This document shows, one piece after another, positions 22,994 through 38,296 of a DNA stretch of 64,000 nucleotides. The DNA comes from a virus: positions 22,554-86,553 of IMG/VR virus record IMGVR_UViG_3300028581_000026; one strand, 5' to 3'. The position numbers and the translations under genes were made by a program. Positions within the stretch are counted from its first letter, which is position 1, and each line of letters opens with the position of its first letter. The notes beneath the pieces were generated by a model. The model was not told the origin of the DNA, did no database searches, and worked only from the letters and a program-made list of their open reading frames with translations.

Positions 22994-23794
22994 TTACATC
23001 CACTCAAATAAATCATTGGATAAGTTTCTCAACTTTCTCAAACTTTTTTCCTTTATCTGGCGCACCCTCTCTTTCGTCAAATTAAAGTCACCACCGATGT
23101 CTTCCAATGTTCTTGGTGCTCCTGTCAACCCAAAATAATCTTCCACTATAACTCGTTCTCGTTCATCCAAACAGGTCAATAGTCCCAGCAATTTGGTTCT
23201 AAGAATGTCTTTGGTGTTAAATGACTCATCCGGCATATCCGCCTCATCATTTTTGATAACATCAAATAAACTATCACCCTCTTCATTGATATCCATATCA
23301 AGGTTAATCATTGATGGTAATGACGCAAACTTACCTTCCAATTCACCACCCTTGTCTTCAATCTCCTTCTTGGCTCTATGTAAGTCTTGGACAACATTAA
23401 CTGGGAGACGAATGGTTCTTGCATTGTCATTCAAACTTTGAATAATTGATTGTTTAACCCACCACACAGCATAGGATATAAACCTCAAATCTTTATTCCA
23501 GTCAAAGTTCTTGATTGCTTTCATTAAACCATAATTACCTTCAGCAATTAGTTCATCCAAATCAAGTCCTTGATTTTGATATTGTTTGGCAACCGTAATT
23601 ACAAATCGTAAATTACCTTCCAATAGTTCTTTGTTAACATCCTCAATCTGTCTTGGTGTCAATTCACCAGACTTCATTAGGACGGATAGTTCTTTCTCCC
23701 TCTCAGGAGTCATAACTTTCTTCTTACGAATGTCCTTGAGGTAGGATTGGATCTCTTCTTGATTAATTGGAATACCTGAATTTTTCTCTTTCAT
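22994..23794 (-). CDS. sigma-70 family RNA polymerase sigma factor (RpoD-like)
   Basis: A 266-aa primary-type sigma factor. Region 1.2 (EIQSYLKDIRKKKVMTPERE) is at 14-33, region 2 including 2.3/2.4 (FDWNKDLRFISYAVWWVKQS) at about 61-121, region 3 (about 122-180), and region 4 with the helix-turn-helix (TLEDIGGDFNLTKERVRQIK) at 205-258. It lacks region 1.1, as do Bacteroidetes RpoD proteins. It should redirect host RNA polymerase to phage promoters, for example TATTTATA or the 50-nt blocks. It overlaps the upstream gene by 4 nt. Confidence 0.95.
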   Translation of the reverse strand: MKEKNSGIPINQEEIQSYLKDIRKKKVMTPEREKELSVLMKSGELTPRQIEDVNKELLEGNLRFVITVAKQYQNQGLDLDELIAEGNYGLMKAIKNFDWNKDLRFISYAVWWVKQSIIQSLNDNARTIRLPVNVVQDLHRAKKEIEDKGGELEGKFASLPSMINLDMDINEEGDSLFDVIKNDEADMPDESFNTKDILRTKLLGLLTCLDERERVIVEDYFGLTGAPRTLEDIGGDFNLTKERVRQIKEKSLRKLRNLSNDLFEWM

Positions 23795-24399: not shown

Positions 24400-26619
24400 T
24401 TATTGACTTACACTACTGATATTATTTTCCTTTGTAATTTTAACAATGTTATCCGCCCAATTACTAACAAGTGGGTTATGAGTTATAACAAACAACTTCT
24501 CAAAATAGTTCTTTATTTTACCAAAAAATTCACCAACCATATCAAGATTTTCATTTGATATTTTTCCAAACACTTCATCCATTACCACAATATTCGGTTT
24601 TGGTAAAGAACTTATTTTAGTTAGTACCGCTCTCAACGCCAATGATGCCACAGTTCTTTCATAACCTGATCCTGATGACATAAGTTTCTCAATCTGGGTA
24701 TTATTATCAATCATTATAAATTCAACCTCATTCTTGTCATTTATGTTAATCTCCAATCTAAAATGACAGCTATCTTCCAATAACCTTTGTAACTCAGAAT
24801 TCAACATCGGAATCATTGTTTTCATTATGGTTTTGGATATTCCATTCTTCCCAAAGATTTCCAAATATAACTTATAGATTTTCTCCTTGTTAGCTTCTTC
24901 TTTAATCTTAACAATTGTTTGTTCATTCTGCTCAATCTTATCTTTCAATGACTGAACCTGATAATTGTTTGAATCAATAATTCTTTGAACGGAAGTCTTC
25001 TCCCTATCTAATTCCTCAATTCTTAGGTTAGCTTTGATAAGTTGGGTTTCAATCTTGCTGTTGGTGGATATGTTATCCTGTAACAAATTGAATTTTTCCA
25101 ACTTATCTTCCAATCCTTTAATTTTCATCACATACCCTTCAATTGTCAATTCATATTTTTCTTTGATAAGTTTGTTTTTCTCATACTCATCAAATTCTTT
25201 TTTGAGTTGGACATACTTGGCTTCTTTGTCAATTATAATATTCATTTCCCCCTCAAATTGGTTCTTTTGTATGTTATAATTGTCAAGTTCAGATATTTTT
25301 GATTGGGTTATGGATGCCATCATCAATTCAATCCCACAATGTTCGCACTTAATCCCACCATCAACGGAGGATTTAAGTTCATTGATTGATTTGATTTTCT
25401 GTTCAATCTGAACAATTTCTTTGTATAGAACTTTATGGGTTTCCTTTAACTTATCGTGTTCTTGTTCTGAATAAAACTCTGTTGGCTCAATAACCTTGAG
25501 TTCTTTTAATTGTCTATCAACACCTTGTTTTAGGGTTTTAATTCCCATAATTTCGCTTTGAACATTTTCCGGTACAATCTTGGCGATTTCAATATCAATA
25601 TCCATATGTTTGGATTTCAATAGATTATCCCTATATTCTTGTCCCTTGATTATTCTGTTCTGAACATCAATCAAATTGTTTTGTTGGGTGATATTGTCTG
25701 ATGTTAATTCATTTATCCTGGTGGAATATCCATCATTATCTGACTTCAGTTTCTCACTGGAATAAACATTTGATAACATTGATTTTGAAAACTCCGAATA
25801 GATTTCCTTTCCAATTTCTTCTTTCTTTTTAAGGAAGTCCAATCCCATAAACTTGGATAATACTTGTCCTCTTGCTGTGGGTTTGGAATCAATTAACTCT
25901 TCAAGGTTTGTTGCCGTGGTTAGAATTGTCATTAAGAAATCATCCTTTGTTCCAATGGATGTTTTAATAAAGTTTTCCGTTTCTCTTCTTTGTTCCCCAG
26001 TAAAGTTCTGTAATGAACCATCTGATAATTTCTTATAGAAGTCCAATTCAGTTTTTACATTCCAGGTGTCATCCTTTTTCTTTTTTCTTTCAATATTTCT
26101 GATGATGATATATTCATCCCCATCAATTATTATTTCACCTTTGACATGGACTTTATCGTAGTTTGAGAATCTATTGAATATTTCTTCAGCTTTGGTTGTC
26201 TTGGTTGTTTCATTGAAGAATAAGAATAACAATAGATCAACGGTTAGAACGGTGTTATGAGACACAATACCATTTGTATAATATTGATGAACTTCAGCAA
26301 CTTGGATATCATATAGGTCATCTTTAATGTCCAATAATTCAATGTTGGAGACATTACTACTACCACTAATAGTTTGTATGCTTTCACCAATTTTAATCTC
26401 TTTAAGAACAACGAATTGGTTATCGGTATTTTTTAACTTATGATAATCGGCACCTTCAACAGACATCCCATTATCAAGTTCGCATCTATAAACTTCAGCA
26501 TTTTTTTCAGTTATACCACACCATTCAATGTTTTTATACCCATATGGTGTGTTTACTTTAAACCCTAAATCACCATATTTTTGGTATAAATTATATAAAT
26601 CCCCTATTTTAATTTTCAT
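24400..26619 (-). CDS. gp46/SbcC-like recombination ATPase, C-terminal part with split-intein C-fragment
   Basis: Residues 1-122 are an intein C-fragment ending in IVSHN; block B-like GADYHKL is at about 57-63, and YDIQVAEVHQYYTNGIVSHN contains blocks F and G. From Thr123 (TVLTVDLLLFLFF) the gp46 sequence resumes right after the Walker A lysine. Then a coiled coil with a zinc hook (CEHC at 425-428), a second coiled coil, the ABC signature (SSGSGYERT), Walker B (IVVMDEVFGKIS) and the ITHN switch. Trans-splicing with the 27675-28280 product would restore the P-loop. It works with gp47 (35250-36029) in DNA-end processing. Confidence 0.93.
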   Translation of the reverse strand: MKIKIGDLYNLYQKYGDLGFKVNTPYGYKNIEWCGITEKNAEVYRCELDNGMSVEGADYHKLKNTDNQFVVLKEIKIGESIQTISGSSNVSNIELLDIKDDLYDIQVAEVHQYYTNGIVSHNTVLTVDLLLFLFFNETTKTTKAEEIFNRFSNYDKVHVKGEIIIDGDEYIIIRNIERKKKKDDTWNVKTELDFYKKLSDGSLQNFTGEQRRETENFIKTSIGTKDDFLMTILTTATNLEELIDSKPTARGQVLSKFMGLDFLKKKEEIGKEIYSEFSKSMLSNVYSSEKLKSDNDGYSTRINELTSDNITQQNNLIDVQNRIIKGQEYRDNLLKSKHMDIDIEIAKIVPENVQSEIMGIKTLKQGVDRQLKELKVIEPTEFYSEQEHDKLKETHKVLYKEIVQIEQKIKSINELKSSVDGGIKCEHCGIELMMASITQSKISELDNYNIQKNQFEGEMNIIIDKEAKYVQLKKEFDEYEKNKLIKEKYELTIEGYVMKIKGLEDKLEKFNLLQDNISTNSKIETQLIKANLRIEELDREKTSVQRIIDSNNYQVQSLKDKIEQNEQTIVKIKEEANKEKIYKLYLEIFGKNGISKTIMKTMIPMLNSELQRLLEDSCHFRLEININDKNEVEFIMIDNNTQIEKLMSSGSGYERTVASLALRAVLTKISSLPKPNIVVMDEVFGKISNENLDMVGEFFGKIKNYFEKLFVITHNPLVSNWADNIVKITKENNISSVSQ

Positions 26620-27619
26620 TTTTTAAAAATTTTACACACTTTTTAATAACCTCATCTTTTTCTTTTCTATACTCAGAATCCCATATCACTAACACATCAA
26701 AATTATGTCTATTGGCTAATTTAATCTTAACCTCATCTTTTTTCCAAATATCTTCAGATGTTATACTTTTACGGAAAGGATTTGGGGTATCTGTAGTTAT
26801 AAAAATATTAGGATTTGCATGATAACTATCTCCATTGTATTCAATAATTTTTTTATTAAAAGTATCGGTAAAGTCATATCTATAAAACCCTTCATCACCA
26901 GTTAATACAAATTCACCACCTTTTTTAGCAAACATAACATAATTCAATTCTTCAATATTTTCGTAATATTTTAATAATTCAAAAAACAAATCTTGTGACA
27001 CTTTTGAATATCCTGATTTTAAATTACCGTTTTTATATAGTGATTGTTGCCATTTTTTTTGTCTTTCAAAAAATATCTTTTTACCCTCATCTTCCCCATA
27101 TTTCTCAATACATTTAACTAAACTAAATTTATTTTGGAATTCTGAAACTTTATTTTTTGACTCTTCAACTGAAAATCCTTTTTTTATCCAATATTCAACA
27201 CTTCTTGGTGAGTGTAATTTACCTTCTTTAAGTTTTTTTTCTTGAAAAAGTTTAACTCCATCTTTTTCACCATATTTTATTATGAATGACCTTTCAGTGT
27301 TCATCAAGTGTAATTCTGTTTGAAGTTTAGCATCTTCTAATGAAAATCCTCTACTTATCCAATATTCAATTAAATTTGGTTTCATTTCTTTAACTTTCTT
27401 TTTCGATTCTTCTTCAGTTAAACCCCTTTGAATCCAATATTTAACACTAAATGCAGAACCTTTAGCAATAGTAATTCCCGCATCTTTTAATCTTTTAACA
27501 ATTGTTGATGTATCAACATTGTATTTTTTGGATATAAAAGTTGTGGATTTCATTTCATTGATATATAAATTTATTATATCTTGAATTTGATTTTCCGTAA
27601 AATTACACATTTTTCCCAT
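26609..27619 (-). CDS. Vsr-like (EDxHD) homing endonuclease inside the split gp46 locus
   Basis: The N-terminal helix-turn-helix (about 7-50) is followed by three copies of a 22-residue module (YWIQRGLTEEESKKKV, YWISRGFSLEDAKLQT, YWIKKGFSVEESKNKV). The C-terminal catalytic domain has YDF (249-251), IIEYNGDSYHANP with E260, D264 and H267, and DVLVIWDSEYRK. This fits the EDxHD family related to Vsr mismatch nucleases found with fractured phage genes. It lies between the intein halves, overlapping the C-part start by 11 nt, and presumably spreads the split-intein allele. Confidence 0.88.
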   Translation of the reverse strand: MGKMCNFTENQIQDIINLYINEMKSTTFISKKYNVDTSTIVKRLKDAGITIAKGSAFSVKYWIQRGLTEEESKKKVKEMKPNLIEYWISRGFSLEDAKLQTELHLMNTERSFIIKYGEKDGVKLFQEKKLKEGKLHSPRSVEYWIKKGFSVEESKNKVSEFQNKFSLVKCIEKYGEDEGKKIFFERQKKWQQSLYKNGNLKSGYSKVSQDLFFELLKYYENIEELNYVMFAKKGGEFVLTGDEGFYRYDFTDTFNKKIIEYNGDSYHANPNIFITTDTPNPFRKSITSEDIWKKDEVKIKLANRHNFDVLVIWDSEYRKEKDEVIKKCVKFLKNEN

Positions 27620-27674
27620 ACCTTTTTAGAAATAAATATACCCATATAACTAAAAAGGTAAGGAGTGAATGTAA

Positions 27675-28280
27675 TTATTTTAATTCATTGGGTAAAAACC
27701 CTAACTTATTAATTATATAGTCAATATCAAATTCTATTTCAATCTCCGTATCACCCCTAACGCATTTCCCGCCAAAATTACTAGGCGTTGATTCCACCAC
27801 CGAGATACCATTACATTTGTCAAAATCTATTTTTTGATTTTGTCCATAAGATAAGAAATTGGAGAATTCAATATTTTTGATATACCATTTTTTGAATGGG
27901 GTTACATCTTCATCTGATAATAGTCTATTATCAACTATTCTGTCAAGATTGAATATTTCATCTGACAATTGATTTTGATTTTTGGTGTCAAGGTATGATT
28001 TAACCAATTCATATTGATAATTTTTATCAAGGATATTGAAGGAGACATCAACCGATTGATTTGTTGTTTCAACTGATTTTGTCTTGGTTATAACATTGAT
28101 ATTGGTTGAGTTATATTTTTTTTGGAAGTAATGTTTTACACTTTTTATTTTTTCTTGTGTGAAGTTTTCGGCATAATCTTCCCAAATAACCTGGATGTAT
28201 GGATTATCAAATTTGTTGAAATCTATATCTTTTATCATAAAATTGTAATTGTATTCTGGTGGTGGATTAAATAAATCCAT
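27675..28280 (-). CDS. gp46/SbcC-like recombination ATPase, N-terminal part with split-intein N-fragment
   Basis: Residues 133-172 are the start of an SMC/SbcC-type ATPase (IKNIEFSNFLSYGQNQ, then ESTPSNFGGK, the Walker A up to its lysine). At Cys173 a 29-residue intein N-fragment begins (CVRGDTEIEIEFDIDY) and ends at a stop codon. Such short N-fragments characterise atypical split inteins (AceL-TerL and VidaL type). Residues 1-132 are an extra domain not found at the N-terminus of T4 gp46; I do not recognise it. Trans-splicing to the 24400-26619 product is required for an active P-loop. Confidence 0.92.
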   Translation of the reverse strand: MDLFNPPPEYNYNFMIKDIDFNKFDNPYIQVIWEDYAENFTQEKIKSVKHYFQKKYNSTNINVITKTKSVETTNQSVDVSFNILDKNYQYELVKSYLDTKNQNQLSDEIFNLDRIVDNRLLSDEDVTPFKKWYIKNIEFSNFLSYGQNQKIDFDKCNGISVVESTPSNFGGKCVRGDTEIEIEFDIDYIINKLGFLPNELK

Positions 28281-31249: not shown

Positions 31250-31447
31250 CTATTTTATTAATTCAATTTGTTTTTTTAACTCATCACATATTTCATATTC
31301 TTCGTGTTTAATGAAATATGGTAGTAAATAATTTTCTAATATCTCCAATCTTTTATGAGTTTCAAGTCCATCCATTTTGAAATCTGATTTCTTAACATCG
31401 TTATATGTCTCCCACATTACTTTGTTTAATAAATCGTAATTACTCAT
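31250..31447 (-). CDS. hypothetical protein with UvrB/C-like helical end (65 aa)
   Basis: Start at 31447 (MSNYDLLNKVMWETYN) overlaps the upstream gene by 8 nt; an earlier ATG at 31468 is possible. The last 25 residues (FIKHEEYEICDELKKQIELI) resemble the UVR interaction motif (EEYExAxxLRDxI). Function unknown. Confidence 0.6.
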   Translation of the reverse strand: MSNYDLLNKVMWETYNDVKKSDFKMDGLETHKRLEILENYLLPYFIKHEEYEICDELKKQIELIK

Positions 31448-32303
31448 ACCACCTTTGTTTAAACTCATTTTTTTTGTTATTAAACTCCTCTTCAGTCAAT
31501 ATGATTAATTCATTAGGATCATTGAACATTTCTTCAATGTGGGGTTGAGTACCAAGCAAATCCCCACTTTCATAAGCTTCCTTTATTTCGGTTACTTCCT
31601 CAAGGTATTTTTTATAAGTTTCCATCAATTTATTATTTGGGTTTGGTGGATTAACGATATAATTGTTTAATAAGTTCCAATCATCCAATAATGTATTTAA
31701 CACTTCAAAACATAATTCTTGTGTAATTTTACTTCGTTCATAAGATCCCTTTCTACCTTGAGTTCCAGTTTTGCTTCCCCTTGGTGCTGGTTGGTGGTGA
31801 CATTCCGTATTCCCATTCTTGCAAACAGGTCTTGGTATCCAAGTATTACTATTTGTCCATATATCTGTGGGTTTGGCTCGTTCATCACCATATACGCAAT
31901 ACCAAATGGTATGTCTTGTGAATTCTTGCATCCAGGGCATCTTTCTCAACATCCCCCTTGGATTTTCAATAAAGAATACCATATTGGGATTTATCTTTAA
32001 CCATTCCTTTATTAAAGATATAAAATGTTGATTAACGATATCACATTTCTTGGCATATTCACTTTTGGGTTCAGTTCCGTTTCTATGGTGGGATATTGCC
32101 GCAATTGTGTATGTTGTGCAATCTGGGGATGCCCATATAAAGTCCGGAACGAAGGGAACATCATTTAAGGTTAATTCACCAATATCTTTTGATAAATTAA
32201 TTCCCTCATATTGTTCCCAATCAACCGAGAATACCTCCATTCCCAATGATTCCGCAACCTTTCCTATTGACCTGCTCCCAGCAAATAATTCCAATACTTT
32301 CAT
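31440..32303 (-). CDS. Dcm-like DNA cytosine methyltransferase with altered catalytic motif
   Basis: Motif I (VLELFAGSRSIGKVAE) at 3-18 and ENPRG at 113-117 place it in the C5-methyltransferase fold, but motif IV reads SPDCTTY (C62) instead of PCQ. Phage proteins with the SPDC(T/S) variant are common and their chemistry is unclear to me. The basic middle (PAPRGSKTGTQGRKGSYERS) may contact DNA. It could methylate or otherwise modify pyrimidines. It overlaps genes at both ends (4 and 8 nt). Confidence 0.8.
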   Translation of the reverse strand: MKVLELFAGSRSIGKVAESLGMEVFSVDWEQYEGINLSKDIGELTLNDVPFVPDFIWASPDCTTYTIAAISHHRNGTEPKSEYAKKCDIVNQHFISLIKEWLKINPNMVFFIENPRGMLRKMPWMQEFTRHTIWYCVYGDERAKPTDIWTNSNTWIPRPVCKNGNTECHHQPAPRGSKTGTQGRKGSYERSKITQELCFEVLNTLLDDWNLLNNYIVNPPNPNNKLMETYKKYLEEVTEIKEAYESGDLLGTQPHIEEMFNDPNELIILTEEEFNNKKNEFKQRWYE

Positions 32304-36931: not shown

Positions 36932-38296
36932 TTATTTTTTAATTAATTTTAATCTTTCACATCTTTCTTCAATAGTTTGTATGTCTTCCTCTGTTAGATT
37001 TAGATATTTGTAAATGTTTTCATCATCTACTTTCTCTAATTTTGAAAAATCAATATGTGGAACTAGAGATAGTGTAGATATTGTAATTGTCTGTTTATTT
37101 TTTATAAGAGAAACACAAAATCTGAAAACCTTTGTATTAATATAATTAAAGAAATTAATCATATCATTCTTATTATTGAAATTCCAATTAACTAAACTTT
37201 GATTACAAATTTCCCCAACATTTCCAATGAGAACTCTACCCATGGAATATGGATTGGCACCATATTTTGATGTTGTGAATATTTTATAAAGATTGAAATC
37301 ATTCTTGATCCTATCAGTTAAATATTCATTTGGTAAATATTTAACAGAACCTTTTTGTTCAGAAACATGACATTTCACACAATGTCCATTATCAATATCA
37401 ATAAGTCTATTATCATTTGATGATAAATTATAATATGATTGAGGTCTAAAATTCAACATATCTAATTTATCAAATTTTAAAAATTTATCCAAAACCTTTA
37501 ATTCATTTGTATTTAATTCATATGGTAAAAAGTTCAAAGCAACTTTTCTATTATAAGCAACACCATTTAATTCAAATGTATCTTTTGTGTTTTCATTATC
37601 AATAACAAAATATGAAACACCTCCTGATATTTCAGTTCCCTTAAACGGATTTCTGGAATAATGAACAATTTTATCAACATTATAACCATTAATCATCTTT
37701 TCCCTGAATTTTTTATGTGATGGAAGGTTCATCCAATTAGATTTAGTAATCATAATTACATATCTATCCGCTAACTCAAAAGCCTTATCTACGAATTCTG
37801 GATATATACTAGAGGATCTGTTTCCACCTTCGCCACGAACTCCGTTATATGGTGGATTTGTTATAACACAAGTAAATTTCTTTTTCAATTCATCTAAATT
37901 ATTTTTTTCATCAAGGATGTTATAATTATATCTATTAAAATCCAATAAGTTTTTAATTTTTAGTATCTTTTGAACCTTTATCATAGTTGATTTAGCAATA
38001 TCTACCTGTGCTTTTGAAATATCATTTCCAGCAATTTTACTATGTATAAATTTATTTCTTTCTTCATTATCTGGAATTATATTTTCTAAAAAATTCCAAA
38101 ATTCTAAATATAAACACAACAAAAATGTTCCTTTCCCACAACAAATATCTAAATATGAAAAATTAACATTAAATTTTTGAGAAATCAAATCTCTACAAAC
38201 AGAAATAGGAGTCATCGTTGATGAATCCGAACTTTCTAATTTATCTATTTGCTTGAATAGGATATCTATTCGCAATTGTTGTTCTTTTGAAATCAT
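36932..38296 (-). CDS. Eco57I-like N6-adenine DNA methyltransferase (454 aa)
   Basis: SAM-binding motif I (SYLDICCGKGTFLLCLY) at about 47-63 and catalytic NPPYNGVRGEG at about 150 define an adenine methyltransferase. ITKSNWMNLPSHKKFREKMI matches the Eco57I-type post-catalytic segment, and the C-terminal about 180 residues would be the target-recognition domain. It includes a CVKCH pair (about 315) that may bind zinc. It lies between DUF3892 and membrane-protein genes in the inverted-repeat-bounded module. Confidence 0.9.
   Translation of the reverse strand: MISKEQQLRIDILFKQIDKLESSDSSTMTPISVCRDLISQKFNVNFSYLDICCGKGTFLLCLYLEFWNFLENIIPDNEERNKFIHSKIAGNDISKAQVDIAKSTMIKVQKILKIKNLLDFNRYNYNILDEKNNLDELKKKFTCVITNPPYNGVRGEGGNRSSSIYPEFVDKAFELADRYVIMITKSNWMNLPSHKKFREKMINGYNVDKIVHYSRNPFKGTEISGGVSYFVIDNENTKDTFELNGVAYNRKVALNFLPYELNTNELKVLDKFLKFDKLDMLNFRPQSYYNLSSNDNRLIDIDNGHCVKCHVSEQKGSVKYLPNEYLTDRIKNDFNLYKIFTTSKYGANPYSMGRVLIGNVGEICNQSLVNWNFNNKNDMINFFNYINTKVFRFCVSLIKNKQTITISTLSLVPHIDFSKLEKVDDENIYKYLNLTEEDIQTIEERCERLKLIKK

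What the first reader, a model, noticed from the sequence alone, without database searches (positions are those of the whole stretch)
24400..28280. Atypical split intein breaks the P-loop of a gp46-like recombination ATPase
The N-half ends ESTPSNFGGK followed by a 29-residue intein fragment starting CVRGDTEIEIE and a stop; the C-half starts with a 122-residue intein fragment ending GIVSHN followed by TVLTVDLL. Joined exteins restore the Walker A Gly-Lys-Thr. Split position (29 + 122) is that of the atypical AceL-TerL/VidaL-type inteins, not the usual 100 + 35. Activity of gp46 thus depends on trans-splicing.
Basis: partly seen in the sequence, partly recalled or inferred. Interest (0 to 1): 0.85.

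Follow-up and report, generated by a model that had tools for sequence, protein, structure and literature searches.

The report
Mobile split intein interrupting phage gp46
A phage DNA-repair gene is broken in two inside its ATP-binding loop by a mobile element made of an unusually split protein-splicing domain plus its own DNA-cutting enzyme, so the two protein halves must be stitched together after translation; the kind of element is known, but this host gene and its series of intermediate forms are, as far as I could search, undescribed.

Summary
A gp46/SbcC-like ATPase is encoded in two ORFs: 172 extein residues ending ESTPSNFGGK plus a 29-residue intein-N, and a 122-residue intein-C ending GIVSHN plus 617 extein residues starting TVLTVDLL. 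So this is a 'fractured gene': split intein plus free-standing endonuclease. About 25 related IMG/VR loci carry the gene uninterrupted. Split alleles are scattered over the gene tree, and five of six have inteins more alike than their exteins, which indicates horizontal mobility. Contiguous homologues show that the two fragments are one HINT domain; one folds at pLDDT 97 and matches the atypically split VidaL intein best. Related elements sit at GK|T/S of TerL, DnaB, ClpA/B-like and UvsX genes. Cultured T4-like phages carry annotated TerL versions, so it is a new member of a known kind. New here: gp46 as host, a graded set of alleles (empty, split with endonuclease, split without, contiguous), and an endonuclease leader with a T4-like hairpin and promoter. 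Splicing and homing are inferred, not shown.

The parts
27765..28280 (-). N-extein of gp46/SbcC-like ATPase (172 aa), ends in Walker A ...NFGGK
   Evidence: colinear with uninterrupted relatives
27678..27764 (-). Intein-N, 29 aa (Cys1, block A CVRGDTEIEIE), followed by stop 27675-27677
   Evidence: 29 aa in nearly all of the gp46 subfamily; dN/dS about 0.07-0.22 among five close alleles
27620..27674 (-). Leader of the endonuclease gene: inverted repeat ACCTTTTTAG (27650-27659) / CTAAAAAGGT (27620-27629) enclosing TATATTTATT (27631-27640)
   Evidence: Fold z about -3.3 to -3.6; motif is promoter-like in this window; coordinates
26609..27619 (-). Free-standing EDxHD (Vsr-like) homing endonuclease ORF, 336 aa, with an N-terminal helical/HTH-like region, probably DNA-binding
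   Evidence: phrog_22677; invariant E236, D249, E260, H267, D295, K298; model pLDDT 84.8 matches Vsr 1cw0 (prob 1.00) and I-Bth0305I 3r3p (prob 0.96)
26609..26619 (-). 11-nt overlap of the endonuclease stop with the C-half start (possible translational coupling)
   Evidence: the overlap is kept in L004, L013, L014
26254..26619 (-). Intein-C, 122 aa, ending ...YYTNGIVSHN (block F Asp, penultimate His, terminal Asn)
   Evidence: invariant D104, H121, N122 and block B H60 in A2
24400..26253 (-). C-extein of gp46/SbcC-like ATPase (617 aa, Thr+1) with Walker B region, plus stop
   Evidence: phrog_77 E 3e-33 and SbcC_Walker_B

Best explanation
The locus is a fractured gene: a mobile, class-1, atypically split (29 + 122 aa) intein inserted between Lys and Thr of Walker A in a phage gp46/SbcC-like recombination ATPase. 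A free-standing EDxHD homing endonuclease gene lies in the break. Proposed working: (1) The two halves are made as separate polypeptides, and the C-half is probably translated partly by coupling to the endonuclease stop. (2) IntN docks on IntC, Cys1 forms the thioester, it passes to Thr+1, Asn122 cyclises, and an uninterrupted GK-T P-loop is restored. (3) The endonuclease cuts intein-less gp46 alleles near the insertion codon during co-infection, and recombination repair copies in the whole intein-N/endonuclease/intein-C block. (4) Endonuclease expression is restrained by a leader hairpin that hides its start region on read-through mRNA and is relieved by a promoter inside the hairpin, as for T4 I-TevI. 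Shown here: gene anatomy, homology, fold, conservation of catalytic residues, purifying selection, and presence/absence with horizontal spread. Inferred: splicing activity, DNA cleavage and homing, and hairpin/promoter control (the weakest step).
For: Exact colinearity with ~25 uninterrupted alleles; the sister gene L008 (92/88% aa identity) is uninterrupted. Six distinct split alleles, five with the endonuclease. Split alleles are polyphyletic on the extein tree: 5 changes, at least 3 forced by starred branches. L013 and L032 exteins are sisters (100/99) with inteins 45-46% identical in intC, while L002/L013 inteins are 81% identical over 59-61% exteins. Element pN is below extein pN in all 10 pairs of L002/4/11/13/14 (permutation P<0.001); pS is lower in 8 of 10 at P<0.05. 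dN/dS is 0.04-0.22 in intN/intC/HE of these alleles. Contiguous homologues L070/L072. Intein model pLDDT 96.9 with VidaL as best PDB hit. Endonuclease fold like Vsr and I-Bth0305I. Same GK|T/S position in related elements in TerL, DnaB, Clp and UvsX.
Against: No splicing, cleavage or expression data. Block B carries Ala in place of Thr (GADYH), though this is usual in related inteins (A2). The hairpin is significant in only about half of the related leaders, and is weak or absent in L004, L014 and L032. Synonymous sites of the exteins are near saturation, so rate ratios are rough. The co-conversion signal rests on 30 nt.
Confidence: 0.9

Rival explanations
1. Genes-in-pieces without splicing: the endonuclease insertion split gp46, and the halves work non-covalently, as reported for NrdA split by mobE in phage Aeh1.
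For: Phage genes split by endonucleases with working separate pieces are known (PMC10448857, citing Friedrich et al.). The halves end and start in open reading frames.
Against: The extra 29 + 122 residues are a full HINT domain with conserved Cys1, block F Asp, His-Asn and Thr/Ser+1, under purifying selection. The break falls between Lys and Thr of Walker A, where an unspliced protein could hardly bind ATP.
Confidence: 0.05
2. A decayed intein: the element is a relic, and the phage relies on another repair pathway.
For: No activity data. Some relatives have lost the endonuclease (L011, L074) or hold a truncated one (L079).
Against: All three ORFs are intact in five diverged lineages with dN/dS about 0.1 among the close ones; the catalytic residues of intein and endonuclease are invariant.
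Confidence: 0.03
3. The endonuclease is only a bystander; spread is by ordinary recombination of gp46 alleles.
For: Phages of this group recombine (patchwork identity of L002 to L006 and L008). L011 and L074 carry the split intein without an endonuclease.
Against: An intact catalytic motif under selection, in the same intein gap in several unrelated host genes.
Confidence: 0.07

Closest known systems
Fractured genes with split inteins and Vsr-related endonucleases (Dassa et al. 2009, 10.1093/nar/gkp095; paper not held, content from memory and from citing papers)
   Same: Conserved phage enzyme broken by a split intein with a free-standing endonuclease gene in the break; EDxHD/Vsr-type endonuclease.
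   Different: Those inteins, as I recall them, are split at the canonical position (about 100 + 40); here the split is at 29 + 122. Whether gp46 was among the host genes of that study I could not check.
Atypically split TerL inteins: AceL-TerL (25+104), GOS-TerL (37+115) (sizes from PMC11766414), and VidaL
   Same: Short intein-N, long intein-C, class 1. VidaL is the best PDB fold match, and TerL inteins are the nearest in cultured phages.
   Different: The host protein is gp46/SbcC, not terminase; Thr+1 rather than the Cys+1 listed for AceL-TerL and GOS-TerL.
Fractured TerL of Escherichia phage HY03, Pseudomonas phage PspYZU05, Campylobacter phage F379; split gp17A/17B of Aeromonas phage PX29
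   Same: N-extein + short intein-N / endonuclease / intein-C + C-extein; the PX29 record notes N-intein, C-intein and GIY-YIG endonuclease.
   Different: Another gene, other insertion sites in some (HY03, PspYZU05 and PX29 are not at the P-loop), other endonuclease types; PX29 carries the endonuclease in the C-half ORF.
gp41-like helicase of Vibrio phage vB_VmeM-32 (KU160494)
   Same: Short intein-N, an endonuclease homologous to the window's, intein-C, P-loop insertion.
   Different: DnaB-type helicase host gene; not annotated as such in the record; the exact extein junction differs slightly (intein-C is followed by TGKS).
I-TevI, segB and mobE leaders of T4-like phages (PMC2988022)
   Same: Endonuclease start region inside an RNA hairpin with a promoter placed so that its transcript lacks one arm.
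   Different: Here only predicted; the promoter motif is ATATTTATA-like, not the T4 late TATAAATA.

Membership tests
Inteins (class 1) | Cys/Ser1, block F, penultimate His, terminal Asn, Cys/Ser/Thr +1 | tested here: met
   CVRGDTEIEIE ... DIQVAEVHQYYTNGIVSHN|T; invariant columns in A2
Inteins (class 1) | HINT fold | tested here: met
   Contiguous homologue L070, pLDDT 96.9; 62 PDB hits at E<=0.001, those listed nearly all inteins
Inteins (class 1) | Block B TxxH | tested here: inconclusive
   His60 invariant; Thr replaced by Ala (GADYH), as in relatives
Split inteins, atypical (short-N) type | Two ORFs, intein-N about 15-40 aa | tested here: met
   29 + 122 aa; contiguous relatives show that nothing is missing
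Split inteins, atypical (short-N) type | Trans-splicing activity | not testable with these tools
   Needs expression
Fractured genes (Dassa et al. 2009) | Free-standing endonuclease gene between the split-intein halves of a conserved enzyme | tested here: met
   ORF 27619..26609
EDxHD homing endonucleases | Vsr-like catalytic fold with E/D/H/D residues | tested here: met
   3r3p prob 0.96, 1cw0 prob 1.00; E236, D249, H267, D295 invariant in A1; D249 and H267 still at least 90% conserved in the wider A3
EDxHD homing endonucleases | Site-specific cleavage of the empty allele | not testable with these tools
   Empty alleles exist; cleavage untested
gp46/SbcC/Rad50 ATPase | Walker A after splicing and SbcC Walker B region | tested here: met
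   phrog_77 3e-33 for the C-half; uninterrupted sister L008 1e-39 over 748 aa

The most novel reading that the evidence does not exclude
The gp46 P-loop site holds a full life cycle of gene fracture: empty allele, split intein with endonuclease (one fracture, nearly always ending LPxELK*), split intein after endonuclease loss (L011, L074; truncated remnant in L079; endonuclease exchanged for GIY-YIG in L081), and re-fusion to a contiguous intein. L082 still carries the old C-half start MKK inside its linker. This would show how split inteins arise and can revert. The endonuclease is also run by a T4-like hairpin and promoter switch carried with the element.
Probability: 0.5. Interest if true: 0.65.

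Novelty: new member of a known kind. Interest (0 to 1): 0.5.

Why it matters
The element breaks the catalytic P-loop of the ATPase that (as gp46/47 in T4) may help to process the DNA breaks on which homing depends, so it sits in part of its own replication machinery. The set of alleles makes the origin of split inteins testable in one gene family. It also offers several new short-N split inteins (29 aa, Cys1/Thr+1), a format that is useful for protein semi-synthesis.

Tried and rejected
Assembly artefact: rejected, identical in L002 and L003 and homologous in diverged phages. Chance similarity: rejected by fold and profile evidence. phmmer of the endonuclease against PDB sequences: no hit, so the fold search was needed. 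Pfam hits of the endonuclease (Flavodoxin_3, WH_DRP) are below cut-off and were ignored. A clean topology test of intein against extein trees: not decisive, p-AU 0.136 for L002+L004 and few supported branches in the intein tree; identity contrasts and presence/absence carry the argument. T4 late promoter TATAAATA on the coding strand of the leader: not found; the motif there is ATATTTAT-like. Cellular genomes: no relative found with the patterns tried. Dassa 2009 was not held, so its list of host genes could not be checked; searches for intein together with gp46 or SbcC/Rad50 found no report of an intein in gp46 (titles, abstracts and counts only, not every paper was read). Limits: the survey comes from scans capped at 80 loci and an N-half pattern that required [GSA]K before Cys, so its counts are not a census and GK|T/S is partly built in; three DnaB loci without N-half are filed there under gp46.

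Full report
WHAT IS THERE. On the minus strand, a gp46/SbcC-like ATPase is encoded in two ORFs. The N-half (28280..27675) is 172 residues of extein ending ESTPSNFGGK, then CVRGDTEIEIEFDIDYIINKLGFLPNELK and a stop. The C-half (26619..24400) is 122 residues of intein ending YYTNGIVSHN, then 617 residues of extein starting TVLTVDLL. The C-half hits phrog_77, an SbcC-like family (3e-33), and the intein C-terminal models of Pfam (below cut-off) and NCBIfam (above cut-off).

WHAT WAS MISSED. Between the halves lies a 336-aa ORF (27619..26609) that overlaps the C-half start codon by 11 nt. Its sequence finds no PDB entry, but its model (mean pLDDT 84.8) matches E. coli Vsr (1cw0, probability 1.00) and the catalytic domain of the homing endonuclease I-Bth0305I (3r3p, 0.96). 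E-values there are weak (0.08-0.4), so the family rests on fold probability plus the motif: E236, D249, E260, H267, D295 and K298 are invariant across eight homologues that include cultured Caulobacter, Campylobacter and Vibrio phages. This is the EDxHD type (family described in PMC3943268). The locus is therefore a fractured gene, not only a split intein.

EMPTY AND FILLED ALLELES. IMG/VR returned 34 loci with this gp46. Mapping the five parts onto them: about 25 are uninterrupted; L002/L003 (identical to the window over the whole 3.9 kb), L004, L013, L014 and L032 carry intein-N, endonuclease and intein-C; L011 carries both intein parts with only 43 nt between them and no endonuclease. The closest gene to the window's, L008, is uninterrupted (92% and 88% aa identity). 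On the extein tree the split alleles are scattered: five changes, at least three forced by well supported branches. The exteins of L013 and L032 are sisters with inteins 45-46% identical in intC, whereas L002 and L013 share 81% in intein-C over 59-61% exteins. In all ten pairs of the five close alleles the element differs less in amino acids than the exteins (permutation P<0.001), and in eight of ten also at synonymous sites (P<0.05). This is what horizontal movement predicts. The last 30 nt before the insertion in the window are 87% like split L004 but 67% like sister L008, and L002 and L004 share PSNF where nearly all uninterrupted alleles have PPNF; this fits co-conversion but rests on few sites.

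THE TWO PIECES ARE ONE INTEIN. In other phages the same gp46 site holds a contiguous intein: L070 (..LPDEITIGELN..), L072 (..LGFLPDELNEEITIGELN..) and L082. Against the window's ..LGFLPNELK* and MKIKIGDLY.., nothing is missing at the break. The L070 intein folds at mean pLDDT 96.9, and its best PDB match is the VidaL intein (6vgv, E 5e-10, TM 0.84), which from my own knowledge is itself an atypically split intein. The catalytic residues are conserved (A2); block B has Ala for Thr, as in its relatives. dN/dS of 0.04-0.22 across intein-N, intein-C and endonuclease of the close alleles indicates maintenance.

A WIDER FAMILY. The endonuclease and intein-C searches find the same layout in TerL, DnaB-like helicase, ClpA/B-like ATPase and UvsX genes (identified) as well as in very different gp46 lineages (L043, L044, L091, L205). 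Insertion is between Lys and Thr/Ser of Walker A, the 'classic' P-loop intein site (PMC5050341). Among cultured phages, fractured TerL genes with a short intein-N are present in HY03, PspYZU05, F379 and PX29, and the PX29 record already names N-intein, C-intein and endonuclease. Vibrio phage vB_VmeM-32 has the arrangement, with a homologue of the window's endonuclease, in a gp41-like helicase. Hence 'new member of a known kind'.

GAIN AND LOSS OF THE ENDONUCLEASE. In the 29-residue subfamily nearly all split alleles end at the same LPxELK* point, which suggests one fracture. L011 and L074 have lost the endonuclease, L079 holds only a short zinc-finger-like remnant, and L081 has a GIY-YIG ORF instead. 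L082 is contiguous but retains MKK, the start of its relatives' C-halves, inside the linker LPNELKKLENAMKKIITI: probably a re-fusion scar. On the intein tree the contiguous forms lie among split ones, but several branches are long and few are well supported, so direction is inferred.

EXPRESSION. The 55-nt leader of the endonuclease contains a perfect 10-bp inverted repeat whose 3' arm covers AAAAAGG next to the ATG (27620-27629 with 27650-27659; z about -3.3 to -3.6). In the loop lies TATATTTATT, 21 nt before the ATG. In this window TATTTATA occurs 14-30 nt upstream of a same-strand ORF in 9 of 24 cases, against 1 of 24 for its reverse complement, and with the overlapping ATATTTAT it is the top of 56 permutations. 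So it is probably a promoter element of this phage. A transcript starting there would lack the 5' arm. This is the layout described for T4 I-TevI, segB and Aeh1 mobE (PMC2988022). About half of the related gp46 leaders fold significantly (8 of 16 with z below -2), the others do not, so this part is tentative.

VERDICT. Trans-splicing is very likely (0.9) but untested. The finding is of real interest for the evolution of split inteins, but it belongs to a known kind.

Noticed in passing
window, e.g. 878(-), 15079(-), 19940(-), 22979(-), 33870(-), 38828(-), 48051(+), 63422(-): ATATTTATA-like motif 17-27 nt before many start codons on the same strand: probably a promoter element of this phage.
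   Followed up: partly
L205, L206, L209, L210: Two fractured genes lie close together in one phage: a DnaB-like helicase and gp46, each with its own atypical split intein.
   Followed up: no
L081 3118-3984: The same gp46 split-intein gap holds a GIY-YIG endonuclease instead of the EDxHD one.
   Followed up: partly
L057 1834-5000 (Vibrio phage vB_VmeM-32, KU160494): gp41-like helicase fractured at its P-loop by an atypical split intein with an endonuclease of the same family; the record does not annotate it so.
   Followed up: partly
L045 3893-4951: A relative of the endonuclease stands free between uninterrupted genes.
   Followed up: no
L047, L052: UvsX-like recombinase fractured at STGK|T (L047; N-half only seen in L052) by the same kind of element.
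   Followed up: partly
window 22994-23794: Phage-encoded RNA polymerase sigma factor gene downstream of the fractured gp46 (phrog_351).
   Followed up: no
window 31440-32303 and 36932-38296: Two DNA methyltransferase-like genes.
   Followed up: no
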